Below are positions 14,379-57,400 of a stretch of 57,698 nucleotides of DNA, piece after piece. The notes under the pieces were generated by a model. The model was not told where the DNA came from. It saw nothing but the letters and a program-made list of their open reading frames with translations, and did no database searches. The stretch covers positions 1 through 57,698 of the IMG/VR virus record IMGVR_UViG_3300023116_000053. One strand, given 5' to 3'. Every line of letters begins with the position of its first letter. The stretch's first letter is position 1. Position numbers and translations under genes: made by a program. This DNA comes from a virus.

Positions 14379-14732
14379 CTATATTTTTTTCCTAAATTTA
14401 TTTAAGTCTGCTTCTGTTGCTCTTGGAATACGAGTATTAAATTTTTTTTCTAAATTTTCAATATCTTCATCACTAACAGGAATTAATTTATGTCTACACT
14501 TATAACCCCCAGCCCAATCAATAACTGAATTTCCGTTCTTGTTGACAATTCTTGATAATTGTCTGGCAGTCACGATTTTGTTAACCAATGCAGCACACAA
14601 AGCCCTGTTTCTTGAATCTTGTGGACCGGCATAAAAAAATTTTTGGTCTGCCAACCACTTTCTCTCAGACAAAATATTTTTAACTATATTGAAAACTTGT
14701 TCTTCTAAATTTGTTTTGTTGTTATCTTTCAT
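14379..14732 (-). CDS. Stand-alone MuF C-terminal-like domain protein
   Basis: 117 residues from the ATG at 14732, which forms an ATGA overlap with the methyltransferase stop; a longer upstream frame would lie inside that gene. The sequence FYAGPQDSRNRALCAAL, TARQLSRI, and WAGGYKCRHKLIPV (about residues 33-88) follows the C-terminal domain of MuF-type minor head proteins, where an 'SR..C' stretch is followed by 'W.G..CRH...PV'. In other phages this domain is fused to a head-morphogenesis protein and in some cases to effectors. Here it is free-standing, next to a methyltransferase and the gp13-like gene. A minor capsid role is inferred. Confidence 0.6.
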   Translation of the reverse strand: MKDNNKTNLEEQVFNIVKNILSERKWLADQKFFYAGPQDSRNRALCAALVNKIVTARQLSRIVNKNGNSVIDWAGGYKCRHKLIPVSDEDIENLEKKFNTRIPRATEADLNKFRKKI

Positions 14733-15703
14733 TTGTTTAAATCTTTTAATGCTGCTTCGCCAAACTTTCGTGCCATAGATACTACAACTCCATTGCCAAT
14801 CGCTCTTATTAACGCATCTCGCCACTTACAAGCGGTTAATACGCCAACTTTTTTTGGTCTTTTGCCTTTTTCTTTGACTTGTTTTATATTTGTAATTTCA
14901 TTCCTATCCCATCCGATTTTTGTTTCTATTGCCAACAATGCTCTGCTTTTTTCTTTTCCGCGAAATTGATTGGCTTCGTCAATATCAAGAAAAATATCTT
15001 TCCAGGCTTGAGGTATTTCTTCCATACCCATTTTGTCAGCAAACTCCCAATAATAGCCTTTTCTACCAAAATGTTTATAAAACCACCTGTTTGCTCTCCT
15101 GTCGCAAGCAGCGTACCATTTAGATTCAGTTGCAGTAATAGCAGGACAAACGGAATCACCCAATTCGTAATATCTTGTATCATACTCTCTATATGTTTCT
15201 GGCTCTGGGAATGTTCCGCCTACAATTCTTTGCCTTTTTTGCTTGGGTTCTTCTGCAAATTGTGCTGCATTATACTTTGTTCCCCAATCATCTTCTCCAG
15301 GCTCTCTTGTAATTACATTTTCAACCCATAACACTTTTATGTTCGGCCATACTTTAGTAATATCTAGCGACCATTTTAACAAATCATCTTTGTATTTTCC
15401 TGTTACTATTTGGCCAGAACCTTTTTTTGCCGGAGAAAGTTTTTGACATGGAGGGGATGCCCAAACAGCCGTAAAATCCGACAAATCAACATCTCTAACA
15501 TCTGCCATAACAGAATTTCCGCTACCAACATGAGTCGAAAGCCAATGCGCGACAGGATTTAATTCAAATCCCACACACTCCCATCCAGATTGCTCTAAAC
15601 CAAGCCTAGCAAACCCAGCACCATCAAATAGAACTGCTGCTTTTGGCTTTCGATTGACTTGTTCGTTCATGTATTTTCTCCAATTTTCCATAATCAACTT
15701 CAT
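14729..15703 (-). CDS. C5-cytosine DNA methyltransferase with N-terminal tag
   Basis: A 324-residue enzyme of the DNA C5-methyltransferase fold. Motif I is AVLFDGAGFARLGLEQSGW (residues 23-41), motif IV ASPPCQKLS (82-90, catalytic C86), motif VI VENV (127-130), and motif X AIGNGVVV (about 301-308). It transfers a methyl group from S-adenosylmethionine to cytosine; the recognition sequence cannot be read. The first 14 residues (MKLIMENWRKYMNE) are a Trp-containing version of the cargo-type tag, also found at the start of the basic LRV-related protein at 46743-47426. No partner restriction enzyme is present, so protection of phage DNA or modification of the host is more likely than a restriction-modification pair. 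Confidence 0.85.
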   Translation of the reverse strand: MKLIMENWRKYMNEQVNRKPKAAVLFDGAGFARLGLEQSGWECVGFELNPVAHWLSTHVGSGNSVMADVRDVDLSDFTAVWASPPCQKLSPAKKGSGQIVTGKYKDDLLKWSLDITKVWPNIKVLWVENVITREPGEDDWGTKYNAAQFAEEPKQKRQRIVGGTFPEPETYREYDTRYYELGDSVCPAITATESKWYAACDRRANRWFYKHFGRKGYYWEFADKMGMEEIPQAWKDIFLDIDEANQFRGKEKSRALLAIETKIGWDRNEITNIKQVKEKGKRPKKVGVLTACKWRDALIRAIGNGVVVSMARKFGEAALKDLNK

Positions 15704-15833: not shown

Positions 15834-17627
15834 TTAGTTACCAGACTCGCCAAGCAATCCTCGTACAATTACCAAACCATACATATCTGGTTTGACCATT
15901 TTTTTCGCATAGCGAGTACGAACGATTTTACGAGGCGTAAAGTCTTCGGTTCCAAGAATCGTGGGAGATACTTGCAGTGGAACATAGGGAGCATAAACAT
16001 ATCCGCTTTCGAGGAAAGAACTACCTTTTCGTCCTACAAGAATCAAATTGCGAGGAAAATATGGGTCAACATATACATCCCACTTCTTAGAAATAGAACC
16101 AACTTTTTCACAACCTACAGTTCCAGTGTTGACATCAGAAGTCACAGTGGAAGATTTAAATCCATTGGTTTGTTCTACAATCGCAGCAACTTCAGGGCCA
16201 CAGACAAAGAAGTTTGCACCTCCACGCAGAGTCTTACGGTGCATTAAAGCACTCAGGTCTTGAATTGTGTGGAGCAGAGTTTCATTCCACTCAGAAACGT
16301 TTCCAGTGAAATCTGGAGCCTTCGAACTTGCTCCGATTTCCAGACCAGTTTCGCGATGCAAGAACATACCAGGAGAACGAGACCAGTAATATTTACCACA
16401 AGTTGCTCCATTAATAAGGTCAACAATGATTTCTCGGTCGATTTCCAAAGCGATTTCTTCAGACAGAATCTGAGTTAATTCAACTTCAGCATCAAGGTTG
16501 TGATAAGCACTCAAGTCTTCACCCAATTCTGGGGTCCACTTTGCTTTGAGTTTTTTGCCAATTGCAGTAACTGCAATCGAATCGATATTTAAGTCGATTT
16601 CGGGAATGTCGGGTTCGTTTTCCAAACCCCAAACATCTTGACCTTGAATAGAGCCGAGCGCACCACCATTCTGGAAATTGTCAACAATCGGAAAAGTAAA
16701 CTCAAGTTTCGGACCAGTTGTTCCTGAAAGTTGAACAGGGGTTCGAGACCCATCCCAAGACACATTGAAAAGCAACAATTCGGTCTTTCCAGATCCAGAA
16801 TATTGAGTCAATCGTCTTGCTTGCACATCGTTAGCAGCGAACAAACCATGCCCATCAGAACTTGACACATGAATGGAAACAAGGTTTTCGTCGTTAAAGT
16901 AAGCACCAGCAGAAGTGTCATCCAAATCACTTAAAGTAATTTTAGTAACAGCAACATTTGTAGTTCCCGAAACAAATTCAGGGTCAAAACGACAAAGTTT
17001 CATCAATTCTTCTTCTAATACAGCATTTCGTGTGACTGTACCTGGGGTGTTTACTACACCACCGTATGTTCCAGAAAGAACTGTGGTAGTGTTTACTTCT
17101 TTCGAGCCAGTAGGAGAAGAGTACCCTTGGTTTAAACTGAAAAAGCCAAGTTCTCCATTTTGTTCGGTAAGTAAAGCACCTCCAGTAATTTCTGAACCAA
17201 GTCGTCCTTGCCCGTATACAGACTGATTAAGGTCTGAATATAGACGCTGATAATCTTCCCCGTATCCAGCAGGACGAGATAGTTTAAAATCCAAGAAGAA
17301 AATCAATCCAGAAGGAAGAGACATGGGTTGTACAGAGACTAAGTTGTTTGCAATTAGATCTCCAAAGACTCTTCGAACGAGAGGGAACGCTACAGAAGCA
17401 AAACCTTCTACGTCACCTCCCCCTGCTCTAGCCATAACCGATGCTTCTTTCAAAAGTTGCTTTGCTTGGTTTTCAAGCAAGACGGCCATGTTTTGTCGCG
17501 ATGTTTCAGTATCCAAACCTTCTAAAAGTCCGGTATTTTCCCACTTATTCAAGAGGGCAGCACTTTCTTTAAGCTTTTCGTTTTCGCGACGAGTAATGTT
17601 TTTTGTTAATGAACCTAAAATACTCAT
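15834..17627 (-). CDS. 23: Major capsid protein, T4 gp23-like
   Basis: A 597-residue protein with the gp23 plan: an N-terminal helical pro-region of about 61 residues, then SVAFPLVRRVFGDLIANNLVSVQPMSLPSGLIFFLDF (about residues 78-114), matching the gp23 segment after its cleavage site. Later come ELGEDLSAYHNLDAEVELTQILSEEIALEIDREI and a C-terminal YVPLQVSPTILGTEDFTPRK. LLKE61/A62 is a good candidate cleavage site for the gp21-like protease encoded upstream. It forms the hexamers of the icosahedral head. A strong terminator follows. Very confident. Confidence 0.95.
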   Translation of the reverse strand: MSILGSLTKNITRRENEKLKESAALLNKWENTGLLEGLDTETSRQNMAVLLENQAKQLLKEASVMARAGGGDVEGFASVAFPLVRRVFGDLIANNLVSVQPMSLPSGLIFFLDFKLSRPAGYGEDYQRLYSDLNQSVYGQGRLGSEITGGALLTEQNGELGFFSLNQGYSSPTGSKEVNTTTVLSGTYGGVVNTPGTVTRNAVLEEELMKLCRFDPEFVSGTTNVAVTKITLSDLDDTSAGAYFNDENLVSIHVSSSDGHGLFAANDVQARRLTQYSGSGKTELLLFNVSWDGSRTPVQLSGTTGPKLEFTFPIVDNFQNGGALGSIQGQDVWGLENEPDIPEIDLNIDSIAVTAIGKKLKAKWTPELGEDLSAYHNLDAEVELTQILSEEIALEIDREIIVDLINGATCGKYYWSRSPGMFLHRETGLEIGASSKAPDFTGNVSEWNETLLHTIQDLSALMHRKTLRGGANFFVCGPEVAAIVEQTNGFKSSTVTSDVNTGTVGCEKVGSISKKWDVYVDPYFPRNLILVGRKGSSFLESGYVYAPYVPLQVSPTILGTEDFTPRKIVRTRYAKKMVKPDMYGLVIVRGLLGESGN

Positions 17628-20674: not shown

Positions 20675-21040
20675 TTAATTTTTAAAAAACATGCTTATAT
20701 CTACACCTGAATCATTAAAATCTAAACCGGGGAATCTTTTTGAAGCAGATACTCCGCTTGTGTCAGATAGAGACTCGTTAATTTCTTTCGATGGGGTTAC
20801 ACCGTCAAACACGTCAACACCGTTGTACATATCTTTGCTTAAATTAGATAAGTTTTTGACTTTTTTGTTTGGTATTTGACTTATTTTTTTACTTTTGTTT
20901 TCGGATATAACTTCTACATTATTAATTGCTAAAATTGTTTCAGAAATAACATTTGAAAGTAAATTTTCTTCCATTATCATTTCTTTTATACATTCTTTAA
21001 TGAGAGGTTTTACTAATTTTACAAAATCTTTTTTTTTCAT
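20675..21040 (-). CDS. Prohead core-like small protein downstream of the protease
   Basis: A 121-residue protein beginning with a helix FVKLVKPLIKECIKEMIMEE, a version of the shared tag, followed by LLSNVISE. The tail contains GVDVFDGVTPSKE and SGVDISMFF, a repeated GVD-(V/I) theme near the C-terminus seen in small phage proteins next to prohead proteases. Its place after the protease and before the scaffold fits a prohead core component (compare T4 gp67/gp68), but no direct match to those is visible. Expected to be degraded or packaged. Confidence 0.6.
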   Translation of the reverse strand: MKKKDFVKLVKPLIKECIKEMIMEENLLSNVISETILAINNVEVISENKSKKISQIPNKKVKNLSNLSKDMYNGVDVFDGVTPSKEINESLSDTSGVSASKRFPGLDFNDSGVDISMFFKN

Positions 21041-21058: not shown

Positions 21059-21670
21059 TTATTTCAAAATATCAATCAAAGCAAGTTGATATTTTTCTTT
21101 ATAGGACAGTTTTCTGTTGCTGTATGGAATCTTACATTCTTTCATTAAAAACGCATCTCTAGTAGAAGGTTCTTGAACGATGTCAAAACAAACTAATTGG
21201 AAGTCTTCTTCCACAATAATACCCTCTTTTGTTTCTTTGACTGAACCTAAACCTCTAGAGGAAATTCCAAATTTTATATTATCTTTTATAAGACCTTCTA
21301 AAATCTGTCCAGATGGGTGATGTTTGAGGATTCTTAATTTCCCCTTCAAATCTTTTCCTTCCCACCACAAGTCTTCAACAATGTGACAAACATTTTTTAG
21401 ATCGATTTCTGCTGAGTCTGGATGGTTTAACTCGCCCACTGCTCTATTTTCTTCTATGACTTTTCTATAATTTTCAACTTCTCTCTTGAGAATGGATTCA
21501 CTGTATACCCTTCCATTTCCATTTTTTTCATCTGCTCTTTGGACAGTTCCAGTCAAATAGATGATTCCTTCGTTTTTTATTCTATATTTTTCTGATTCTG
21601 TCAAATAATCTTGACAGATTCCGCTAGGGCATAAATTATAGAATTCTCTCAATAATACTTTCTTATTCAA
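21059..21670 (-). CDS. 21: Prohead core protease, T4 gp21-like
   Basis: A 203-residue serine protease of the prohead family. It has NGNGRVYSESIL (residues 50-61), the His motif GELNHPD (79-85, H83) and the Ser motif FGISSRGLGS (134-143, S137 or S138). T4 gp21 is 212 residues. It cuts the capsid protein, scaffold and internal proteins at L-x-E or I-x-E sites during head maturation. Start is TTG at 21670 with AAAGG nine nt upstream. A terminator lies just upstream of this gene, so it probably has its own promoter within 21671-21700. High confidence. Confidence 0.92.
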   Translation of the reverse strand: MNKKVLLREFYNLCPSGICQDYLTESEKYRIKNEGIIYLTGTVQRADEKNGNGRVYSESILKREVENYRKVIEENRAVGELNHPDSAEIDLKNVCHIVEDLWWEGKDLKGKLRILKHHPSGQILEGLIKDNIKFGISSRGLGSVKETKEGIIVEEDFQLVCFDIVQEPSTRDAFLMKECKIPYSNRKLSYKEKYQLALIDILK

Positions 21671-21699: not shown

Positions 21700-21732
21700 A
21701 AAAAAACCAAGTATTTTATAGTAAATACTTGG
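21700..21732 (-). terminator. Rho-independent terminator upstream of the protease gene
   Basis: On the minus strand CCAAGTATTT and AAATACTTGG form a 10-bp perfect stem around a short loop (21707-21732), followed by seven U residues (21700-21706). It ends transcripts carrying the terminase, portal, small membrane protein and the 19-codon ORF, and separates them from the head operon. Confidence 0.88.
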
Positions 21733-21757
21733 CAGGATTCATTTAGGTTGTTTTTTA

Positions 21758-21777
21758 TCGAGGTTTTCTACCTCGAC
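21758..21777 (-). other. Hairpin between the 19-codon ORF and the terminator
   Basis: TCGAGG and CCTCGA form a 6-bp GC-rich stem with a loop of about seven nt. It is not followed by a U-tract in either direction, so it is a structural element of the RNA and not a terminator. Confidence 0.55.
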
Positions 21778-21779
21778 AT

Positions 21780-21839
21780 TCAGCAACCTTCTTTGCAACG
21801 ACGAATCGTTGGCATCATGAATTTCTTTGAAATTCTCAT
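21780..21839 (-). CDS. 19-codon ORF behind a perfect Shine-Dalgarno sequence
   Basis: The minus strand reads TAAGGAGGTGATAATG, and the frame continues MRISKKFMMPTIRRCKEGC then TGA. The peptide is short, basic and has two Cys. No other start in the window has such a strong ribosome-binding site; it overlaps the stop of the preceding membrane protein gene. The ORF may encode a real small peptide, or translation may be incidental to an RNA that base-pairs with 16S rRNA. No homologue is recognised. Confidence 0.5.
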   Translation of the reverse strand: MRISKKFMMPTIRRCKEGC

Positions 21840-21852
21840 TATCACCTCCTTA
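21840..21852 (-). promoter_or_regulatory. Perfect anti-anti-Shine-Dalgarno site
   Basis: The minus-strand sequence TAAGGAGGTGAT is exactly complementary to the conserved last 12 bases of bacterial 16S rRNA (ATCACCTCCTTA). Spacing from GGAGG to the ATG is five bases. It also contains the TAA stop of the upstream gene. Confidence 0.85.
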
Positions 21853-22140
21853 TTGGGTAAGATTCAGATTTAAACCACAATCTGTGAACAACTTATCTAG
21901 TATATAATTGACGCCAGAACTTAAGAATCCTAAACACAGTCCTGTAACCCAACTTCCATCGAAGTTAAACAAAATTGTTTTACCGCTGATGGACCATATT
22001 AGTAAGCCTGTCCAAAAACCCATACACATACTACATTTAAATAGATACCATTTTGGTCGAAAAATCTTTAAAATTTCTGAATACAACAATATTTGCGTCA
22101 AGCCAAATGAAACTAATGAAAAAATCGCAATTTGAGACAT
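21850..22140 (-). CDS. Small membrane protein, DUF1360-like
   Basis: A 96-residue protein with hydrophobic segments at about residues 4-22 and 43-52 and a weaker one near 65-82. The motif FKCSMCMGFWTGLLIW (about 34-49) matches the 'C..C.GFW.G' pattern of DUF1360-type small membrane proteins that are common in phages. Function unknown. It is expressed with the portal/terminase block and its stop overlaps the strong ribosome-binding site of the following tiny ORF. Confidence 0.65.
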   Translation of the reverse strand: MSQIAIFSLVSFGLTQILLYSEILKIFRPKWYLFKCSMCMGFWTGLLIWSISGKTILFNFDGSWVTGLCLGFLSSGVNYILDKLFTDCGLNLNLTQ

Positions 22141-22224: not shown

Positions 22225-22749
22225 CTATTCGTACATGTAACCAAATGTTGAACCAAATGCATATGGCCTGCCAGATCGAGGAATGACCCCTTTGTACTCT
22301 TCGTGAGGCACATCGCCTAAATCTGTAGATTCACTTTCTTCTGGATTGTACATGCTTCTGTCAACCATGTCTTTGTATTCTTTTTCTTTTTTAAAATAAT
22401 TATCTTCTTTTTCTAAGAATTTGCCGATATTTGCTATAATCATATCAAATTGGTTAATTTTTTCTTCTGGCTCAACAATTTTTCCTTCAATAGAATAATA
22501 TACTGAACCTCCTGTAACACTTTCAGGTACTATCAGCCCTGTTTTAACCAAGAAGTCAAAAAATAAATCTTGAGAGCCATAAACAAAATCAGACATTTCA
22601 TCTTTTGGGAAAGTGATGATTTTTTGTAATTTTGGAATAATAACAATATCGATGTCTGGATGGTCTGTTATCATAATTCTTCCATCGATAGTCCGACTGA
22701 TTTTTAATTTATACGATGGTAGTTTTACTTTGTTAATTTTTATCTTCAT
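22225..22749 (-). CDS. Conserved-looking phage protein near the portal, unknown
   Basis: 174 residues from the ATG at 22749; a TTG five codons earlier would overlap the upstream gene more and lacks a ribosome site. The N-terminal half has strands KLKISRTIDGRIMITDHPDIDIVIIPK; the C-terminal half is helical and charged (about residues 95-130). The opening 'ISRTIDGRIMI' style recurs in proteins next to portal genes in related phages, but no function is known. Possibly a head-assembly or virion component. Confidence 0.6.
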   Translation of the reverse strand: MKIKINKVKLPSYKLKISRTIDGRIMITDHPDIDIVIIPKLQKIITFPKDEMSDFVYGSQDLFFDFLVKTGLIVPESVTGGSVYYSIEGKIVEPEEKINQFDMIIANIGKFLEKEDNYFKKEKEYKDMVDRSMYNPEESESTDLGDVPHEEYKGVIPRSGRPYAFGSTFGYMYE

Positions 22750-23581
22750 GCTCTTTATACTCAAAATTTTCTTGTGTTTCTTTGATAATATTAGCCAGAT
22801 TATAAAATTTCATAATTGTTGTAATTAAATTTTCATCAATCTTTTGTTTATGCATTTCTTGCAACATTTTATAAGCACTGTTTGTCTGTTTTTTGATTGT
22901 GTCGTCTGAACACAATTCTTTGTCTTCTAAAACATTCAACAATTCCTTTTTCAGAGTATCAATTTCTTCATTTAGAAAACTCTTTAGGGAGAGAGAATTG
23001 TCGGAAAAAGAAAATATATATTCTTTTATTAATTTTTTTTGATTCTCCAGAAGAGTGTTGGAGTATGTCTGGTTATATTTTTGTAAAAATTTTCCGACAA
23101 CAACTCCATCTATTTTGTTTTCAAAGTTATTAGAAGTTTCTTTTTGTTTCATCTCTTCTATAATTTTTGTTTCTAATATAACATTGTTTTTTATACTACC
23201 TGTCTTATTGAAAATTTGATATATCGACGCAATATTTTTATAGTTCGGTACAAACTTTGAATACACTTGTTTGCCTATTTTTTTGTTAATAAAATTTAAC
23301 AAATCTGTTTTTTCTTTGAAAAGTTTCTTATGGTCTAAGTAAGAATATTGTTGCTTGACTTCGTTAAGAATGCCTTGGCAAATTTTTTCAGGCTCACCTT
23401 GCACATTCAATATTTGCTTATATAGTCTATATTCCTTGTGAAGTTCTCTTTTTTTATTGAAAAAATTCATTATGCAAGAAGTGATTTCTTTCTTTCTTTC
23501 TTTTTCTTTAGTTTCAACAAACTCTCTCACTAAAATATTAAACAGAAAGACTGGATTTCTTTTTTTGTTATGTTTAGTCAT
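22733..23581 (-). CDS. Helical protein downstream of the portal, unknown
   Basis: 282 residues from the ATG at 23581, which overlaps the portal stop by 8 nt; a longer frame upstream would lie inside the portal gene. It is almost entirely charged helix, with Lys/Glu-rich stretches (ETKEKERKKEITSCIMNFF; KFLQKYNQTYSNTLLENQKK; IDTLKKELLNVLEDKELC). No motif was recognised. Position between the portal and a small virion-type gene suggests a head-assembly factor. Confidence 0.55.
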   Translation of the reverse strand: MTKHNKKRNPVFLFNILVREFVETKEKERKKEITSCIMNFFNKKRELHKEYRLYKQILNVQGEPEKICQGILNEVKQQYSYLDHKKLFKEKTDLLNFINKKIGKQVYSKFVPNYKNIASIYQIFNKTGSIKNNVILETKIIEEMKQKETSNNFENKIDGVVVGKFLQKYNQTYSNTLLENQKKLIKEYIFSFSDNSLSLKSFLNEEIDTLKKELLNVLEDKELCSDDTIKKQTNSAYKMLQEMHKQKIDENLITTIMKFYNLANIIKETQENFEYKEHEDKN

Positions 23582-25607
23582 CTTTTTTTGCCTTAAATTT
23601 TTTATCCAACTTTTCAACTATTTCGTACAATCCATTGTTTATGTCTGCTATTTGCTTTTCTTCTTTTGAAAAATCTTCCATTATGCCCTTGCTAAAAGAA
23701 CCTAATTCACTCCTCCCAGGTATTGATGGATGATTCTTTTTTTTGTTTTTATCAGGGTCTCTTTGTGAACCTACAGGTCTTATAGAGTCAATTTTTGCCA
23801 TAGATTTAAGATTTTGTTGTATTCCTGACCTCTTTTCAGATTCTTTTTTCGGCGTATACAACTTGCCTTTTGATTTTGTTGTCGTTGTTTGTCCATCCTT
23901 ATATGTCATTTTAAAGCCTGCTTTGTTGACATTTACTTTGTGGGGTTCATCTCTCTTGGCTGGCTCTTCAGGAGAAGCCAAGAGAGTGTCGTCAACATCA
24001 TCTCCTACACCTCCTTCGAAACCTCCCCCAAAGGCTGATTCCAAATCAGAACCCGGAGGCGACACTGTTATTTGTTCTTCCCCAAAACCTGGACTCAATG
24101 GCCCGCCTGCTTCAGAACCAAACATTCCTCCACCACCTGTCATACTCTCTTGCTCTAGAGCCTGTGCGATCTTATCTATCTCTAGTTCGTATTTTTTGTC
24201 ATTAATGATTTCTCTTTGGTTGCGAATAAACTCTTCTTCGCTAAGTCCAAAAAAGTTAACAGCAACCCATCTTTTTGAAAAATAACCTTCGGTCGCAGCA
24301 GAAGCGACATCGAATTTAGTTCTCCAATGCTCTAATTCTTGTATTGCTGCTAATTTTGATGGATTAGCAAGGCTCAATTTGAAAGATATTAAGTCATCTT
24401 TTCTAAAGCCTAATGTATAAAGATGAATAATTCCCATCTTTTCTAACTCATTTACTACAGAACGCTGTATCATTTGGATTGTTTTTGAAAATAAAATGTC
24501 TTTTTGTGCCAGCGATGTTTTATCTTCAACTGCACCACCTTCCGGTATGATATAAGAAGCAGGAATTTTAATCGCTGCCATCATTTCATCTCTTAAAAAC
24601 TTAACATCGTCTACATCCCCGGTGTATTGACCCCCAGCCAAACTATCAATCCTTGTGTTACTTTGTCCACGAACTGGAATTATGTAGTCATCTTCAACAC
24701 TAAGAGGATTATAACGCAAATCAACTTGCCCAGAATCAGGGTCTACGATTTTACTACCTTTTAGTTCTTTTTGAAACTGCAAAACATACTGTTCGACTTC
24801 TTCGGGTGGGATATTACCAACATCTAGATAAAAAACTCTTCTCTCAGGGCTTCTAACGATTCTATAACTCATCATAGCGTTTTTTAAAAGGTCGTATTGT
24901 CGGAATATTCTTCGAGCAGGCTCGAAAACACTTTGGCCATAAGGGGCAAATCTATCGTCACCTAAAATTCTAAAATGACAAATTTGCCAATCTTCTAAGG
25001 TTAAACCTCCTGAATTCCATTGAAACTGAACATAATGTGGGTTGTCTTTGTCTTCACCTTCTAGTCTTTCCACTTCTCTTGAAGGCAAGCCAATGACGTG
25101 GGTGATTCCTCTATCTTCATCAATGTCTAAATAAAGAAAGAAATCTCCATATTTGCACATCGTTCTTGTCCAATGAAAGAGATTTGCTTCTATATTTAAT
25201 ACATTGTAATAAAATTCATCTAGAATTGATTTAATTTCTTGATTTCTGCAATCAATCTTCAGCATTTTCTCTAGTTCATTGCAGGATGTTATCTCCGTAG
25301 CATAGATGTCCAAAGCACTGCCAAGAATTGGCTCATATATCATCATGTCAAAATCAGCATATCTTTCCGCTCTCTGTTGTTCGTACACAAGTTTCGCTGA
25401 TTGGTGCAACCACATATCTTTTTGAATCTTTTTAAATGGTGCGCCAGAAGCAGACTTAAAATCGTACTTCTGCATGTCAATTCTACGCTCTCTTCGATAA
25501 AATTGACGCCTTCTTTTGGTGATTGGACCGGAAAAAAGTCTAGTCAAAGCACGATAGAGAATGTTCTCTTGATTTCTTGTATTTTCGCCTTTTCTCTTAT
25601 TAAACAT
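23574..25607 (-). CDS. 20: Portal protein, T4 gp20-like
   Basis: About 677 residues from the ATG at 25607, three nt before the terminase stop region; a TTG seven codons upstream overlaps the terminase. Conserved portal segments are visible: DFDMMIYEPILGSALDIYA (near 85), LHWTRTMCKYGDFFLYLDI-type sequence (near 150), LLKNAMMSYRIVRSPERRVFYLDVGNIPP (near 240), and VDDVKFLRDEMMAAIKIPASYI (near 340). It forms the dodecameric ring for DNA entry and head initiation. The C-terminal 170 residues are Gly/Pro/Lys-rich and less conserved. Follows terminase, as in T4. Confidence 0.92.
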   Translation of the reverse strand: MFNKRKGENTRNQENILYRALTRLFSGPITKRRRQFYRRERRIDMQKYDFKSASGAPFKKIQKDMWLHQSAKLVYEQQRAERYADFDMMIYEPILGSALDIYATEITSCNELEKMLKIDCRNQEIKSILDEFYYNVLNIEANLFHWTRTMCKYGDFFLYLDIDEDRGITHVIGLPSREVERLEGEDKDNPHYVQFQWNSGGLTLEDWQICHFRILGDDRFAPYGQSVFEPARRIFRQYDLLKNAMMSYRIVRSPERRVFYLDVGNIPPEEVEQYVLQFQKELKGSKIVDPDSGQVDLRYNPLSVEDDYIIPVRGQSNTRIDSLAGGQYTGDVDDVKFLRDEMMAAIKIPASYIIPEGGAVEDKTSLAQKDILFSKTIQMIQRSVVNELEKMGIIHLYTLGFRKDDLISFKLSLANPSKLAAIQELEHWRTKFDVASAATEGYFSKRWVAVNFFGLSEEEFIRNQREIINDKKYELEIDKIAQALEQESMTGGGGMFGSEAGGPLSPGFGEEQITVSPPGSDLESAFGGGFEGGVGDDVDDTLLASPEEPAKRDEPHKVNVNKAGFKMTYKDGQTTTTKSKGKLYTPKKESEKRSGIQQNLKSMAKIDSIRPVGSQRDPDKNKKKNHPSIPGRSELGSFSKGIMEDFSKEEKQIADINNGLYEIVEKLDKKFKAKKDD

Positions 25608-25609
25608 TT

Positions 25610-27211
25610 TTAACCCACTATAATCCAAGGTTTATGGATATTACGTTTTTTTTGCATATTTATTCTCTCTTCTAAATATCTGCCAGTCTTATGTATGTCA
25701 TGCATGTTAGACAAATTTGTATTAAAATTCTTTCTGGAAACTAAAATATTACTTAACAATGCTCTGTTTACTTCGACTTCTTTTTGTCCTTTAATTAGTG
25801 CTGTATCTCTCACCCAACAAGCTATTGCACAAGATAAAATTAGGTCGTCGTTGGAACCTTTTTGTGCCTCTGGCTTTCCATTTCTCCATATAAAAGTCTT
25901 TAATTCATCGACAAACCTAGAAGAAGGAGAAAACAACACTCTGTTTCTAATGTATTCTTCCAGTTTAGATATGATAAGAGGTCTTGTTTTAACTGAAGTT
26001 GTGAAGCCTGGAATTGCTGTCGAATCAGATAACGCTTGAACAGGGTCTACATATTCGTGAGTACCTTTTTTAGAAAAATAAAGGTGTGGGTAGCCTAAAC
26101 TCAACATATCTTGGGCTACTGCAATCCCTATGTTGTTGTTCTCTACAACCAACATCGGCTTGCCATAATCATTCGCTACAGAGTTCAAAAAAGAAACAAA
26201 ACTATCTCTTCCTAACTTTCCTTTGTATTCAGCAACAACATTCACTTCTTCAAGATTTATAACTATAATTGTTGAAAAGTCTTCTCCATCTCCCCTAGAT
26301 ACATCTACCGTTATAAGGTATCTGTTACTAGGGTCATAATCTTCCCATATCCAATACTGCCTTTTGTTTCCAGTCTTATATAACGGTTCTTTGATTAAGC
26401 CTTCTAGCCTCTCTATGTCTTTTGAAGAAATTACAGTCGCACCAGAAGCATTAAATGAACATAATAATTCTTGAGCAATTGCTCTTTCTGAAAGGTTTTT
26501 CGTTTCTAATTTGAACCAATCTTCGTCACGCTCTGGATGGACATCCCACATTAATTTTGTAAGCAAAAATTCGTTATCACCGTTTTCTGCCTCAACGCAC
26601 ATTCTGTGAAAAAAATTGCCTGTTCCTGCCGGTGTACTTAAAATAATAGCAGAACCACCTGTTGACAGTGTAGAGTATGCAGAAGTCCATATGTCATCCA
26701 TCAGAGAGCCAATATGAGCGCATTCGTCAACAACTAACAAAGAAAGAGCCTCAGAGCGACATGCATCTTCTGACGTACCTTCAGCCAATATTCCAGAACC
26801 ATTTTTTAACCAAAGTTCATTTTTATTGTTAATGTCTATATTGGAAATTAACAACCATTGAGGTATTTTCTCAAAAATCATTTTAACTTTTTTAATTATG
26901 TTCGCTGCCTTACTCTGTTTCGTAGCCAATACACTTACAACCTTATGTTGACGAAACAAAATAAACCAAGCGACATAACCAGCAACAATTGTAGAAATAC
27001 CCAACTGTCTTGCCTTCAAAACAATGTTGAAGCGATGGTCCCTAAAATTATCCAACAAATCATCTTGAAAATCATAAGTATCGAAAGGTATCAGCCCCTT
27101 CTTTTGATGGACAATCTTGGCGTAAGTTTTTAAGAAATACACAGGGTCTCTACCACAGCGCATTATTTCTCTTTTTATTTCTTTTTTCGTGAGGCGTGTT
27201 TTTTTAGACAT
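25610..27211 (-). CDS. 17: Terminase large subunit, T4 gp17-like
   Basis: A 533-residue packaging ATPase-nuclease. Walker A-like KARQLGIST is at residues 66-74, Walker B LLVVDECAH at 158-166 (D162-E163), and the coupling motif STPAGTGN at 192-199. The RNase H-like nuclease half has ITVDVSRGDGEDFS (300-313, D303) and LVVENNNIG (354-362, E357). It pumps DNA into the prohead and cuts the concatemer. Length is slightly below T4 gp17 (610). The small subunit was not identified with certainty; the next gene upstream is a candidate only by position. Confidence 0.94.
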   Translation of the reverse strand: MSKKTRLTKKEIKREIMRCGRDPVYFLKTYAKIVHQKKGLIPFDTYDFQDDLLDNFRDHRFNIVLKARQLGISTIVAGYVAWFILFRQHKVVSVLATKQSKAANIIKKVKMIFEKIPQWLLISNIDINNKNELWLKNGSGILAEGTSEDACRSEALSLLVVDECAHIGSLMDDIWTSAYSTLSTGGSAIILSTPAGTGNFFHRMCVEAENGDNEFLLTKLMWDVHPERDEDWFKLETKNLSERAIAQELLCSFNASGATVISSKDIERLEGLIKEPLYKTGNKRQYWIWEDYDPSNRYLITVDVSRGDGEDFSTIIVINLEEVNVVAEYKGKLGRDSFVSFLNSVANDYGKPMLVVENNNIGIAVAQDMLSLGYPHLYFSKKGTHEYVDPVQALSDSTAIPGFTTSVKTRPLIISKLEEYIRNRVLFSPSSRFVDELKTFIWRNGKPEAQKGSNDDLILSCAIACWVRDTALIKGQKEVEVNRALLSNILVSRKNFNTNLSNMHDIHKTGRYLEERINMQKKRNIHKPWIIVG

Positions 27212-50719: not shown

Positions 50720-51412
50720 TTAATGTAACTGCTTCATAAATTCTGGATTATTTTTATTATCTTCGATTTGGTCTTCAGAAATTATAATCCAAACATACGG
50801 TTCGCCTGCCTTAAATGCTCCAAATGTTCGATGATTTCCATCTCGAACTTGACACCTCCAACTTCCAAGGTCTCCTTCGTTATTTTCAACCGCATTTTCT
50901 AGTCTATTCTGAAGATCTTCTTGAATATTTTCTATCTCTTCTTCGTCATCCAATGGGTCTAAATAATATAAATGTTCATCCACATACTCTTCCCAATCAA
51001 GTTTCAAATATTCATCCACTTCTTCATCGCCAGTTGTCAAAACATCTTCGTCATTGTATAATGACTCTTTAACATCAATGTAGTCTACTTTACTCAACAT
51101 TCCATATGGCGCATAAAATGTAAATCTTTCTTCTCCGTGAATTATTAAGTCAGCAACACGCTCTAATTTCTCTTCATAAAAAATGTTGCCTTCTATTGGA
51201 TAACAATTATAAGGTGTTGCACGAAACATTCTTCCCTTATATCCTAACCAGTCAACGTTTCTCCCAAAATAAAAATTACCACGATTCTTGTCCAATTCAA
51301 TTTCTTCTGGACTAATTGGTTCGTATTCGTAATCGGGGCCAATTTCTTTTAATATTTCTTTTTTAATTGATTCAAACAATGACATTACCGAGTTTATATT
51401 ATCATTCTTCAT
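50720..51412 (-). CDS. Tagged ParB/sulfiredoxin-like protein
   Basis: A 230-residue acidic protein. The start at 51412 has GGA seven nt upstream; the next Met (residue 10) lacks one. The tag is SLFESIKKEILKE (residues 11-23). CQVRDGNHRTFGAFKAG (187-203) is the DGNHR box of the ParB/sulfiredoxin fold, which in phages is found in nucleotide-dependent or nuclease-like proteins. The DNA-binding part of true ParB is absent, so partition is unlikely. Role unknown. Confidence 0.6.
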   Translation of the reverse strand: MKNDNINSVMSLFESIKKEILKEIGPDYEYEPISPEEIELDKNRGNFYFGRNVDWLGYKGRMFRATPYNCYPIEGNIFYEEKLERVADLIIHGEERFTFYAPYGMLSKVDYIDVKESLYNDEDVLTTGDEEVDEYLKLDWEEYVDEHLYYLDPLDDEEEIENIQEDLQNRLENAVENNEGDLGSWRCQVRDGNHRTFGAFKAGEPYVWIIISEDQIEDNKNNPEFMKQLH

Positions 51413-54400
51413 CTTTTTTTCCTATCGCCCATTCAACATCAAATTTCGCCAATTCAACAAGTGAAAAGAAATCATATGGCCAATTGTAATTATAATCTTT
51501 TATCAAAGTATCTACATCAGATTCCAAGCCTTTCTCTTTTGATTTGTCAAATAATTGAAAATAATTCTTTCTAGCACGCCTTTTAACCTTAAAAATTAAC
51601 CAGCGCATATCAGAGGGTAGGGTGTGGTCAAAAAACATCTCAGATTGGCTAATAGGGTGCTTTAACGTCACCTTTTGTTTTGTTGCTCTTGTTGCTGGCT
51701 TAGGCATGACTCCCTGCCAAATATCAGCCAAATCTTGCTTGTCCAATTCTTCCTCAAATTCAAAAATATAGAATACAAAAGGATTGACTTCGCTGTTTGG
51801 ATTTGTAAAGTCCATGAAAGGTGGGAGATAATAATCTTTAACTTTGTTCATCATGTAATCAATACTAGAGTCTTTTTCTATTTCTTCTTCTTTTAATCTA
51901 AAAAAGTTTCTATTCGCAATGTTAACACCATCTTTTAACTCTCTTTCAACATAAGGAATCGCAATTATCGCTTCGTAAATTTTAGTTTTATCGTTTATCT
52001 CTCCAATTCTTTTCTGCGCTGCCGTAAAACCACAAACTTGAATGAGAGAGCCAATTGTGTCTGAATCGTTTAAGTTTGCATTCAAAACTTGAGGAAAACT
52101 TTCTTCTAGACTGAAATATATGCCTTCTGAGCCTGTTGGTAAACTTCCATATGTACCCCACATTCCTCTAGCCAAACTAGCAGTTTGATAACCAGAATCT
52201 TGACCTCCCACATCTAACGATTCTTCCGTAAAATTCAAAGTTGGACATTCAAACTTTGGCACTATTTTCCAAGAATCAAGTCCGGTGGAATCCCCAGAAA
52301 TCAAAGAATTTTCTTTCTCGAATAGATTTACTGAAGATTCTAGCGTCATAACGTTATTTTGAGCAAAAGGCAAAAATTCGTCCACCCCGTCCAAAGCAAT
52401 CTGATTAGAACTACTTGCCAATGCATTTGAAAAAATCTCATCAATAGAGTATTTTCTAGTTTCTGATGGCTGGAAGGATAATCTTATTCGCGACTCTCCA
52501 TAAAAATAAGGAGGAGTAAAGGGAGCATAGGCTGGGTCTCCCATATTTGTTGCTCTTACGTCAAGTTGGTCGGTTGAAATATCCGAATTGTAATTACTAC
52601 CATACCCTGGTGTGTCGCCTCTAGTAAATTTGTACGAAGGTGGACCAAAATACCTTCCATGATAAGATTGTTCATCCCCCCATGTTACTGCTAACGCTGA
52701 TGTAGAACCAGAAGGAATAGAAGAACTGTGATGACTTGCAATCATATTGAAATCGTTAGTTTTTTTCAGCACAACATCCATATAATATGTAACATCTTTT
52801 ACCAAAGGCTGAAAGTTTTTTTCTGGTTTTGAGACAAAAGATGTCAAATTTTTGTTTTTAAGGAAAAAATTAGGAACTTCTGCCAAGAAGTTGTGCATAG
52901 CCATTTCAAAAAATGGTTTTTTCTCGCCACTCCATGAAAAATAAGGATATTCCGAGTTTGCACTTCCACTAGATTGATTAATTTTGTCTGGAGCCATTAA
53001 AAATATATTTTTTTCTTTCAGTAGCGACTTTTCTAAGTTTACAAGTGATTCGAAAGCGAGTCTCCCATGAAATTTCCCTGCATTTCCATCCGTCGAATCA
53101 AAAGAAGACGACAATAAGTAACACTTCCAATCGTCAGTGGCAGTAATTCCTAATTCTGGACCAGATGATGATATATACAAACAAAAAGGACTTGGTGGTG
53201 TACCACTAGACAAACTTTTGCCACCATCATTTTGCCACAAGTTTTCCAAATAATCAGATGAACCTGTAAAATATGGCCAATCAACCGCTATTCCAGACTT
53301 TATCGTGTTAAAAACAATCCCAGGTGCAAAATAAGGTTGTAATGCCGACTGTAACGCTCTTGCAGCACCACTGTCTGTTTCGTAATTTGACCCGGAAATA
53401 TAAGGGGCTAACGATTGAGAGAACAAACTGCCAAGTTGAGTAGTTCTATTGATTGGATAAAACCCATTGTAAGGGAGCATCTTCTTTACAACATCACATG
53501 TCAAAGTCAAATGCTTTATTTCCCCATTTACACTACGATGGTCTTCAATAAATTTCTCAAAATGTTTCATTAAGTCAGAATTGGTGTATTGTTCAAAAAA
53601 ATCTTCAATATAAGAGCCTGTAGACGATTCAGCACTCTGACTAACATAAGAGCCTTGATTGGAAAGCCAATTTTTGTTTTCTTGAAAAAATCCACTTTTA
53701 ATATAATCTTCTATATGATTAGATATTTTAAATTCTGCTAGAGTTGAATAGCCTTTGCCAAGGACTGTTATGTCTTTTGCATATTCCTCGTAGGAATCGT
53801 ACCAAGGACGCTTGCCAGACTGTTTAAATACATCATAAGGCCAATTATATTCAGTGAATTTTCCAATATTAGGCAAATAAGCGTACTGAAGTGATGCTGT
53901 CGGATAATCATAAACAAAAGAAGGCATAGCATCCGACACTAACGCCCCACTTAAGTAAGACTGCCCCGACCCTAACATCCCTTGGACATTTGCGTCAACA
54001 TAAGGAAAATTAGTTACACTAGATGTAGTAAAATTAGAAAGTTCACCGTCATAAGAGCCTGTCTTGATTCTTTCTCTTATTTCAAGAATAGGGATGTATG
54101 CTGTATCTTCTATTTTATGCCATATTTTTGAATTGCCAAATGGATATACACTCCTACCCCATCGATAATCAACAGCGTTTTTAAACGGAGTTGCACCGTC
54201 TATATCAGTTCGCTCAATAGTATCAGGCCAATAATTAGTTCTTTGGTATACATTTCTATCAAATCCATTATGTCCATAACCACCCGATTCCAAAAAGAAA
54301 GTTCTTCTTCTGTTTCTGGAGATATTGATGTATTTTTTTGTCGGAAAGACAGATTCTTTGTACCTTAATTCAATAAAGTTGTCTCGATACAAAGAATCTG

Positions 54401-57400
54401 GGTTGCCATACAAATCGAACAAGTCTTGATATTTTGTATATTTTTCTCTGTTTACAGCATCAATGTTGAGTTTTTCCTCTGCAAAAGCATTTACAACATT
54501 TGAATACGAATTATTTAAAGATATAACATTTCCGCTAATTTCAAGCAGAACTTGAAGCGGATAATTGTTATTATCGACACATGATTCTATATAATTTTCG
54601 AATTCGTAAGGTTTTATGGGGATAAAATTATCTCCCTGCAACAAATTCTGCGTAGGAGTTTTTGCAACAGAAAAAATGTTGTTTCTTCTCATATGTCGAG
54701 CCACTGGATGGTTTGCTATTCTAGTTTGCTTCCATACTTCCCACCCTCCTGCTCCATTTCTGTGACAGTTGATTGCTTGCAAAATCGATGCTAACCCTGG
54801 TATAGTAGTAGTATTTTGCGTTTCTTCAGTTCCATCTCCAGGAGTTATGACTTTATTAATGTAATTTGCAGTAAAAATATTGTCTCCATCTATATCTGTA
54901 GCAACCAAACTAGGATAGCCCAAAGTGTTTGTTGAGCTTGTAATCGGCTCATATATAATTGTATTTAAGTTTACATAATCTACAGGAATAAACTCAGCAG
55001 CAGGAACGTATGGGTTTGGCAGACCAAAATACCTTATACCTGAAAACAAATTCTTGTAACTACCAAAATCACTTTGACTTACAAAGGTAATGCTCCTGTG
55101 CTTGTTGTCGTGTGTTGAACCCACAGAGTATCTAAACGGAACATTTTGGTTGTTTATTGGATTTCCACTAGCAGTAGTTGCAGTTTTTCGTATCCAAGTG
55201 TAATTTAAATCGCTGGAAGGGATAGAGTTGGTAAACAAAAATGTATTGTTTACAGATGCTGTAACAAAAGAACTGCCAGACTTTTCAATTCTGTAGAAAG
55301 TATTTCTATGCATTTTGTGTTCGGAGGCAGACACCGGAGATGCTACATTGTCGATTCCATACTGATAAGATGCACTGTTCCAAAATTCGTTAAGTTGAGT
55401 TCTATTTCTCCAATTTCTCCAATTCAAAGAATTATATACTGACAATTCGTTTGCTTCGACATCCAAAAAACCATTAGAAGTTTCAAGTCCACCTGGAGCA
55501 TTAAAACGAACAGCAAAGACCGATAAGGAACCAGTCAAATCTCTTCTAGCGACACCATAATTTATTAAATTGGATGCCAACGAAGAGGAAACAATGTTTG
55601 TTCCGCTAATTCCCATATTTCTACGAAAATATATATTATTATCTGTTCTTCCTGTTGTACTTACAACTTGATAGTTTTTGTTAAAATTGCCTAACACTCG
55701 CCTTGTTGTAAGAGTTTTGATGTTTTTGACGTTCAAATAACGTTTTACTAATCCATCTCTACTCCAAGATGCAGGGGGATTGTTTGTACTTTCATAATCA
55801 CTAGGAACCAATAAAAATTCTGTTCCATCGACAATTCCACCAAACTTTTCAGGACGATTGCTTCTGTCGTCTAAATTAGAACCAGTATTTAATGCGATAT
55901 GTCTCCATTGGTATCCACCCACATGCTCTTCAGTAAATGGTCCTTGAAATGGCTTTTCTCTGCCATACTGGTCGTGGTGATAATTTGCGATCGCTAGATT
56001 CTTAGAATTGTTTCCAGCCAACACCCCAGATACAGAAGAAGAAACAATTGTAAAAGGGGCCAATTCCTTGCCAGAACCAGATATATTGCCCTTATTTGAA
56101 TATACGCTGAACTTATATTTCTTGGTTTTTATGGGATGATAAGCAGCATCTTTTTGCTTTGTGTTGTATTTGCTCCTTGGTTCTTCAAGGAAAGCACCAG
56201 ACACAACCAACAAGTTTTGATAAAGAGGTCCATTAGGGTGCAATACATCCACATAGACGAATCTTTTTTGCGAATTGAAGTTGACACCCCCACCCAATTC
56301 TTTCGTGCGCGATAACGAATAAAAATAAGGATTTTTTTCATTTCTATTGGTTTCTTCGTCCTGAATGCGTCCAATCGCCAAGCGATTACTTTCAACATCT
56401 GCATTTAAGTTCCAGATATTAGTATCTAATTTAGATTTTTTATTCCACCACAAACCATTTTCTTCTTCGCTTAAGCCAATTGGAGCATGATAATCTTTCC
56501 ACTGATAAGGTTTGTGTCCTTTGATGTTTCCAGTAGTAGAAGTTTTGATTTCCAGAAAAGGAAACTTGTGTTGAAATTTGTTCCTTTCAAAAACATGAGA
56601 CTCTACAGTGTTCGCTATCCTTTCCGGTGTTTTAGTGGACGCCGGTAGCATCTGACTTAGCATTTTGACAACTGCTGAATCAATCCACTTGTAAAATTCC
56701 AAAAATCTTTCTAAGTCTGGCTCATTTTCAACTTTTGAAAAATATAAATGTCTTAATTTGTCAAGCTTTTTATATGATTTTCTATAGCGATTGACAGGCT
56801 CACCAATCAAATTATTAAATTCAACAATTGTATCTAAATAATTTATCATATCTTCAGATATATTTTGATACATGCTTTTTTCAAAGCGAAAAATATACTT
56901 TGATGGTCTGGTTTCTTTTGTTCTGACTTCGGTATTTTCATCCAATATTTCAATCATATTGGCACTTGAAAGAGATTCTGGCAATGTGCGCTTCAGTGTT
57001 GGCAAATAATTCAATTTAAAAGCATCGTCTGAATTAGATGTAAACCCATAGCCTCTACCTGGATGTCTTATGCCTATTCTTGTCCCATATTCTCCATAGC
57101 GACCTGCTTGTTCTGCTGAACCTGATGTCTCGTCGTATACAAAAAATTCTCCTGACGAATCAGAACCTGTATTGGAAGAAAAATACCAATCAAACAACAA
57201 TGTTTCAGACTTTGGAACAAAAATATTATCAAAATTTTCATCGTATGTTCCAGCACCTTCGAATAAGCCCTTTATGCCATAACTATCGTTATACTTTGAA
57301 TGATTTATTACAGAAGATGTTGGCAAATATTCCAGCCAAGCACGAACGCTAGACAAACAAACATCCGTGTTATAAAGAATTGAGCCTGTGAAGTTAGTTC

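What the first reader, a model, noticed from the sequence alone, without database searches (positions are those of the whole stretch)
21700..21852. Perfect 16S-complementary sequence, 19-codon ORF, hairpin and terminator in one 150-nt unit
The minus-strand RNA contains a 12-base exact complement of the conserved 3' end of 16S rRNA, then ATG and 18 codons, a GC-rich hairpin and a strong terminator. Ordinary genes here have much weaker sites (AAGGA). Options: a very highly translated basic Cys-containing peptide; a leader controlling downstream expression; or a decoy RNA that binds the anti-Shine-Dalgarno of host ribosomes. The head operon starts right after the terminator.
Basis: partly seen in the sequence, partly recalled or inferred. 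Interest (0 to 1): 0.72.

Follow-up and report, generated by a model that had tools for sequence, protein, structure and literature searches.

The report
Conserved two-cysteine microprotein of marine phages
The strong ribosome-binding site marks a real, unannotated gene for a 16-30 residue protein that marine T4-like phages keep beside a membrane protein in their head-assembly genes, and whose function nobody has described.

Summary
On the minus strand an exact 12-base 16S complement (21841-21852) precedes a 19-codon ORF (21780-21839), a hairpin (21756-21778) and a terminator (21700-21733).

It is a conserved microgene, not a decoy RNA. Uncultured marine T4-like phages encode the same tiny protein (consensus KWMLQPVRRCCKGS or ...RRCKxGC). 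It follows a 96-aa DUF1360 membrane protein and precedes gp21, the prohead protease. 90 of 93 DUF1360-defined loci carry it. In 23 gp21-defined loci or records it is present exactly where DUF1360 is (17 both, 6 neither).

Selection is on the protein (pS 0.82, pN 0.31). Every core has exactly two cysteines, as CC or CxxxC, with at least 9 switches on a tree. The 12-base site is not conserved: it is one extreme of sites that are mostly 4-6 nt.

The hairpin is conserved by covariation at a fixed +6 nt after the last core codon in 95 of 96 loci.

In 12 unrelated actinophages DUF1360 lies directly upstream of the portal gene. I therefore favour a small partner of a portal-linked membrane protein acting in prohead assembly. 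The partner step is inferred: AlphaFold2 gave no docking. A cis-acting leader peptide is the main rival.

The parts
21850..22140 (-). DUF1360-type membrane protein, 96 aa, three predicted helices; invariant C36xxC39, R28, D87, G89; immediately upstream partner gene
   Evidence: 60 of 71 family members match PF07098, best E 4.6e-7, the window's own protein not by itself; AlphaFold2 pLDDT 91, 3 helices; invariant residues; closest named BFVD match DUF1360, TM 0.60, E 0.13
21841..21852 (-). 12-base exact complement of the 16S rRNA 3' end (TAAGGAGGTGAT); overlaps the DUF1360 stop codon
   Evidence: duplex -15.5 kcal/mol versus at best -10.6 for 51 other genes
21780..21839 (-). microprotein gene, 19 codons plus stop: MRISKKFMMPTIRRCKEGC; two cysteines in the CxxxC form
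   Evidence: orthologues in 90 of 93 DUF1360-defined loci; pS 0.82, pN 0.31
21756..21778 (-). hairpin, 9 pairs, loop AGAAA; 7-nt arms at +6 nt after the last core codon, as in relatives
   Evidence: z = -7.1 for 21741-21795, with the outer stem; same offset and arm length as the family hairpin
21745..21789 (-). outer stem AGGUUG/CAACCU around the stop codon and the hairpin; not tested for conservation
   Evidence: fold
21700..21733 (-). Rho-independent terminator between the microgene and gp21; counterpart present in L218
   Evidence: L218 sequence
21059..21670 (-). gp21-type prohead protease (TTG start), downstream neighbour
   Evidence: PF03420 E 8.8e-30; phrog_207
23574..25628 (-). gp20-type portal protein, upstream in the same cluster
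   Evidence: PF07230 E 5.9e-64

Best explanation
The unit is a genuine microgene. It encodes a basic protein of about 16-30 residues with two obligatory cysteines, translated in this phage from an unusually strong Shine-Dalgarno site. I think it acts in trans as a small partner of the DUF1360 membrane protein encoded just upstream, and that the pair serves a membrane-bound step of head assembly, such as holding the portal or prohead at the inner membrane as T4 proheads are held. Shown: conserved coding, the strict two-cysteine rule, co-occurrence with DUF1360, location in the head cluster, DUF1360 next to the portal in unrelated phages, and a covarying hairpin at a fixed position. Inferred: physical pairing with DUF1360, the prohead step, and that the strong site gives high output. 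A role for the cysteines in metal or thiol chemistry with the DUF1360 CxxC is the weakest inference. The hairpin probably shapes the 3' end or translation of the microgene message.
For: Orthologues at the same place, DUF1360 - micro - gp21: DUF1360 was found upstream in 136 of 138 distinct loci and gp21 downstream in 128. In the set defined only by DUF1360, 65 of 93 match a strict motif, against 0 on the reverse strand and 1 upstream; 25 more are clear by eye. In the set defined only by gp21, 17 loci have both DUF1360 and micro and 6 have neither. Without peptide ascertainment, pS is 0.82 and pN 0.31, against 0.32/0.43 and 0.38/0.40 in shifted frames; C9 and G12 are invariant; Cys at position 10 or 13, never both or neither, in 82 of 82. 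The Cys form changes at least 9 times on the tree. DUF1360 has an invariant CxxC. In 12 of 12 annotated actinophages checked, the gene after DUF1360 is the portal gene. T4 prohead assembly starts from a membrane-attached portal and needs gp40 (PMC9958956). Genes are inserted on either side of micro, which stays intact. The closest divergent relative, L218, keeps a strong site, micro, hairpin and terminator.
Against: AlphaFold2 on a natural read-through fusion of DUF1360 and micro (L218) gave pLDDT 45-49 for micro and no docking. DUF1360 of actinophages and giant phages has no such microprotein nearby, so DUF1360 can work without it. A 16-20 residue chain fits wholly inside the ribosome tunnel, and a hairpin sits at a fixed distance after the core codons, which also suits a cis-acting leader. 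No expression, proteomic or genetic data were available for these uncultured phages.
Confidence: 0.5

Rival explanations
1. Cis-acting leader or arrest peptide: the nascent chain slows or stalls the ribosome near its own stop codon, and with the hairpin at the mRNA entry this tunes expression of the downstream head genes or coupling to gp21.
For: Conserved C-terminal core with variable N-terminus; chain short enough to stay in the tunnel. The hairpin arm starts +6 nt after the last core codon in 95 of 96 loci, while its distance to the next start varies from 7 to 88 nt. In hairpin-less loci the next start codon usually lies 2-4 nt after the stop.
Against: Micro is kept intact when 150-1560 nt separate it from gp21 (33 of 128). 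It tracks DUF1360, not gp21. About 40% of loci lack the hairpin. 26 of 126 ORFs run on past the core. The two-cysteine rule with positional swap is odd for a tunnel-acting peptide.
Confidence: 0.2
2. DUF1360 plus micro is a membrane-active module (lysis timing, superinfection exclusion or envelope takeover) that merely resides in the head cluster.
For: Small membrane protein plus basic cysteine peptide; the weaker BFVD matches include holins.
Against: The best BFVD matches are DUF1360 proteins, not holins. DUF1360 sits next to the portal gene in 12 of 12 actinophages checked.
Confidence: 0.17
3. The functional element is RNA: the hairpin marks an mRNA processing or stabilising 3' end and the ORF only protects it with ribosomes.
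For: 49 double-change cells in the hairpin, 0 of 500 shuffles reach that. Pattern CGGGTNRYGCCCG is found once in each of 5 relatives' records of 72-183 kb and in none of the other 5.
Against: Amino acids, not bases, are conserved in the ORF. Loci without a hairpin keep the peptide.
Confidence: 0.1
4. Decoy RNA that binds the anti-Shine-Dalgarno of host ribosomes.
For: Exact 12-base complement, -15.5 kcal/mol.
Against: Of 138 loci only the window has 12 nt; most have 4-6 nt. The coding sequence is conserved instead.
Confidence: 0.02

Closest known systems
DUF1360 (PF07098) membrane proteins of phages
   Same: The upstream partner belongs to this family by profile and fold, and as in actinophages lies among the head genes.
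   Different: Here it lies between portal and protease of a T4-like cluster, not directly upstream of the portal, and is followed by a dedicated microprotein. No functional paper on the family was found.
T4 genes 67 and 68 (small prohead core proteins between genes 20 and 21)
   Same: Same interval of the head cluster, small gene products.
   Different: From my own knowledge gp67 and gp68 are about 80 and 140 aa; similarity was not tested, and this one is 16-30 aa with two obligatory cysteines.
T4 gp40 (chaperone for membrane-bound portal initiator)
   Same: The proposed role, keeping the portal or prohead at the inner membrane, is the same kind of step.
   Different: No homology shown; only the role is compared (PMC9958956).
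Nascent-chain arrest or leader peptides (TnaC, SecM, ErmCL)
   Same: Short ORF with conserved C-terminal part and an RNA hairpin next to it.
   Different: Strict two-cysteine rule, retention apart from gp21, optional hairpin, optional C-terminal extension.
Phage small-protein families in general (reviewed in PMC11323111)
   Same: An overlooked short phage gene with a strong coding signature.
   Different: At the short end of the size range; no match in Pfam, PHROGs or NCBIfam beyond two chance-level NCBIfam scores, nor in 50,697 phage records beyond one chance-level hit.

Membership tests
DUF1360 (partner protein) | match to PF07098 | tested here: met
   60 of 71 members match at E up to 1, best 4.6e-7; the window's protein does not match by itself
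DUF1360 (partner protein) | three-helix membrane fold with CxxC at the start of helix 2 | tested here: met
   AlphaFold2 pLDDT 91; invariant C36 and C39; DUF1360 model A0A6J5RIU7 TM 0.60, E 0.13
Protein-coding microgene | synonymous excess in the proposed frame only | tested here: met
   pS 0.82, pN 0.31; shifted frames 0.32/0.43 and 0.38/0.40
Protein-coding microgene | translation product detected | not testable with these tools
   no proteomics or ribosome profiling of an infected host
Arrest or leader peptide | always tied to one regulated downstream gene | tested here: not met
   33 of 128 loci have 150 nt or more between micro and gp21; micro is absent where DUF1360 is absent although gp21 is present
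Arrest or leader peptide | ribosome stalling at the conserved codons | not testable with these tools
   needs toeprinting
Anti-Shine-Dalgarno decoy RNA | long 16S complement conserved | tested here: not met
   12 nt in 1 of 138, mostly 4-6 nt
Conserved RNA hairpin | compensatory base changes | tested here: met
   6 of 7 pairs covary, 49 double-change cells, 0 of 500 shuffles
Rho-independent terminator (21700-21733) | stem followed by T run | tested here: met
   11 pairs then a T run
T4 gp67/gp68 prohead core proteins | sequence similarity | not tested
   only the position was compared

The most novel reading that the evidence does not exclude
A 16-30 residue phage microprotein supplies two cysteines that, with the CxxC of a DUF1360 membrane protein, form a metal or thiol site split between two chains, making a membrane-anchored, portal-linked prohead assembly module found in uncultured marine T4-like phages.
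Probability: 0.2. Interest if true: 0.78.

Novelty: new variant of a known kind. Interest (0 to 1): 0.62.

Why it matters
It is a widespread, strongly conserved phage gene that standard annotation would tend to miss because the protein is so short. Its distribution ties it to DUF1360, and the actinophage gene order suggests that DUF1360, whose function appears undescribed, takes part in portal or head assembly across unrelated phages. That makes the membrane step of head assembly testable outside T4. The positionally fixed hairpin is a second conserved element with no assigned role.

Tried and rejected
Rfam search of the window: no match. Close DNA relatives in cultured phages: only a gp21 stretch in Flavobacterium immuto phages; immuto, Cr30 and Mel-JY01 have neither DUF1360 nor micro. 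Weak NCBIfam scores to Shiga toxin B subunits (12 bits against a cut-off above 200) are chance. Decoy RNA was rejected on relatives. Stop-codon read-through into the hairpin was considered because 26 of 126 ORFs run on past the core and 22 of these go into an in-frame hairpin, but in stop-bearing loci frame 0 and frame 2 are equally open (42 of 46 each), so there is no sign of selection for it. Frameshifting was considered because of the hairpin spacing; I saw no slippery sequence. The hairpin as a dispersed repeat was rejected: the core pattern occurs at most once per record. Fold search of DUF1360 in the PDB found nothing. AlphaFold2 on the fusion gave no docking. Conservation counts from the peptide-pattern search are ascertained and were replaced by the DUF1360-defined set.

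Full report
What is there. On the minus strand, reading from 21852 down, the window has TAAGGAGGTGAT, one base, then ATG and 18 further codons (MRISKKFMMPTIRRCKEGC), TGA, a hairpin and a Rho-independent terminator. The 12-mer is the only exact copy in the window. Its calculated duplex with the 16S 3' end is -15.5 kcal/mol, against at best -10.6 and a median of -5.6 for 51 other genes. The window is a 57,698-base virus record with T4-type head genes on this strand: terminase (25610-27211), portal gp20 (23574-25628), two conserved unknowns, a membrane protein (21850-22140), the micro-ORF, prohead protease gp21 (21059-21670), and gp23 (15834-17627). The terminator lies inside the head cluster, before gp21.

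Relatives. Searching IMG/VR with the membrane protein, with gp21 and with a degenerate pattern for the peptide gave many uncultured contigs. Directly after the membrane protein they encode a tiny protein with the consensus M-x(n)-K/R-W-M-L-Q-P-V-R-R-C-C-K-G-S or ...R-R-C-K-x-G-C. Of 138 distinct loci, 136 have the membrane protein upstream and 128 have gp21 downstream. In the set defined only by the membrane protein, 65 of 93 distinct loci match a strict motif, with 0 on the reverse strand and 1 upstream. By eye another 25 carry a divergent form, and one more is cut off at the contig end. In the set defined only by gp21, 17 loci have both membrane protein and micro. Six have neither: three contigs and the cultured phages immuto, Cr30 and Mel-JY01. 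Several of these loci are near-identical copies, so the number of independent cases is smaller. Five bacterial MAG contigs with the peptide also carry the membrane protein, four of them gp21 too, and look like phage contigs. I call it marine because, as far as I know, most of these IMG/VR samples are marine; sample origins were not checked.

It is a protein-coding gene. With no selection on the peptide, 82 distinct 13-codon cores give pS 0.82 and pN 0.31, while shifted frames give 0.32/0.43 and 0.38/0.40. Third positions carry about twice the entropy of the others. Cys 9 and Gly 12 are invariant. A second cysteine is at position 10 or at position 13, never both and never neither, in 82 of 82, and the form changes at least 9 times on a FastTree tree of DUF1360 plus gp21. 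This is the strongest hint about chemistry: two thiols are needed, and their spacing may be 1 or 4. The start site varies. The longest 16S complement is mostly 4-6 nt, about ten loci have 9 or more, and only the window has 12. So the 12-mer is a lineage-level extreme of an ordinary ribosome-binding site. L218, whose membrane protein is 57% identical, keeps a strong site, the RCKEGC tail, the hairpin and a terminator.

The neighbour is DUF1360. Sixty of 71 members match PF07098 (best E 4.6e-7), although the window's protein alone does not. AlphaFold2 gives a confident three-helix model (pLDDT 91) whose best BFVD matches include DUF1360 proteins (TM about 0.60, but E above 0.09). C36xxC39, R28, D87 and G89 are invariant. 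In cultured phages DUF1360 occurs in many actinophages. In all 12 annotated genomes I opened (Pumpernickel, Big4, TurkishDelight, BiggityBass, Asis, EdmundFerry, Austelle, Eugenia, Tonitrus, Atuin, Eaglehorse, Fugax) the next gene is the portal gene. In T4 the prohead starts from a portal attached to the inner membrane and needs the chaperone gp40 (PMC9958956). Together these suggest that DUF1360 is a head-assembly membrane protein and that the microprotein is its accessory in one T4-like lineage. Only one paper in the library names DUF1360, and from its title and abstract (not read in full) it is a comparative genomics study.

The hairpin. In 96 of 168 distinct loci a stem with a T-N-R-Y-G/C loop follows. 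Its left arm starts exactly 6 nt after the last core codon in 95 of the 96, whether or not a stop codon intervenes, whereas its distance to the next start varies from 7 to 88 nt. On 44 relatives plus the window, 6 of 7 pairs covary, with 49 double-change cells and 0 of 500 shuffles as good. The window's hairpin has the same offset and 7-nt arms but an AGAAA loop. In the records of ten relatives the pattern CGGGTNRYGCCCG occurs once in each of five, on the strand and at the place of the micro locus by contig coordinates where I could compare them, and not in the other five. It is therefore a structured element tied to the end of the microgene, not a dispersed terminator. Most loci without it have the next start codon 2-4 nt after the micro stop. 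What it does is unknown; mRNA 3'-end definition and translation control are both open.

Trans or cis. Genes are inserted between micro and gp21 in 33 of 128 loci and between DUF1360 and micro in 15 of 136, and the peptide survives both. Presence follows DUF1360 rather than gp21. The cysteine rule fits chemistry better than tunnel contacts. I therefore prefer a trans-acting partner of DUF1360, with a leader peptide second. A direct structural test failed to help: on a natural read-through fusion in L218 the micro part had pLDDT 45-49 with no docking.

Known or new. No match in PHROGs, NCBIfam (apart from two chance-level scores) or Pfam, and none in 50,697 phage records apart from one chance-level hit. 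I rate it a new variant of a known kind: a phage small-protein family not represented in the libraries searched, with an unusual cysteine rule, a membrane partner and a positionally fixed hairpin. That the gene is real I would put at 0.95 or more, that it works with DUF1360 at about 0.6, and that the pair acts in prohead assembly at about 0.45; these are my judgements.

Noticed in passing
L300-L311 (cultured actinophages): The DUF1360 membrane protein gene lies immediately upstream of the portal gene in all 12 annotated actinophage genomes opened, from several host genera; hundreds more records have a relative.
   Followed up: partly
window 22225-22764 and 22733-23617: Two proteins of unknown function between portal and DUF1360 with no Pfam or PHROG match, conserved in 129 and 124 of 138 related loci.
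   Followed up: no
window 20675-21040: A 121-aa protein of unknown function just after gp21, found in 93 of 138 related loci.
   Followed up: no
L299:2498-3116: In a 595-kb uncultured phage genome a DUF1360-like protein is followed directly by a small protein with two CxxC-type pairs and weak zinc-ribbon scores, perhaps a larger counterpart of the two-cysteine microprotein.
   Followed up: partly
window 14729-15703: A C-5 cytosine-specific DNA methylase-like protein (PF00145, E 1.2e-5) lies directly downstream of the major capsid gene.
   Followed up: no
window 51402-57572: A 2056-aa open reading frame without a significant Pfam match.
   Followed up: no
L040, L044, L049, L109, L133, L178, L206: A subgroup has a longer peptide (PPRLCKKGCC... 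form, mostly three cysteines) whose start overlaps the end of the DUF1360 gene.
   Followed up: no
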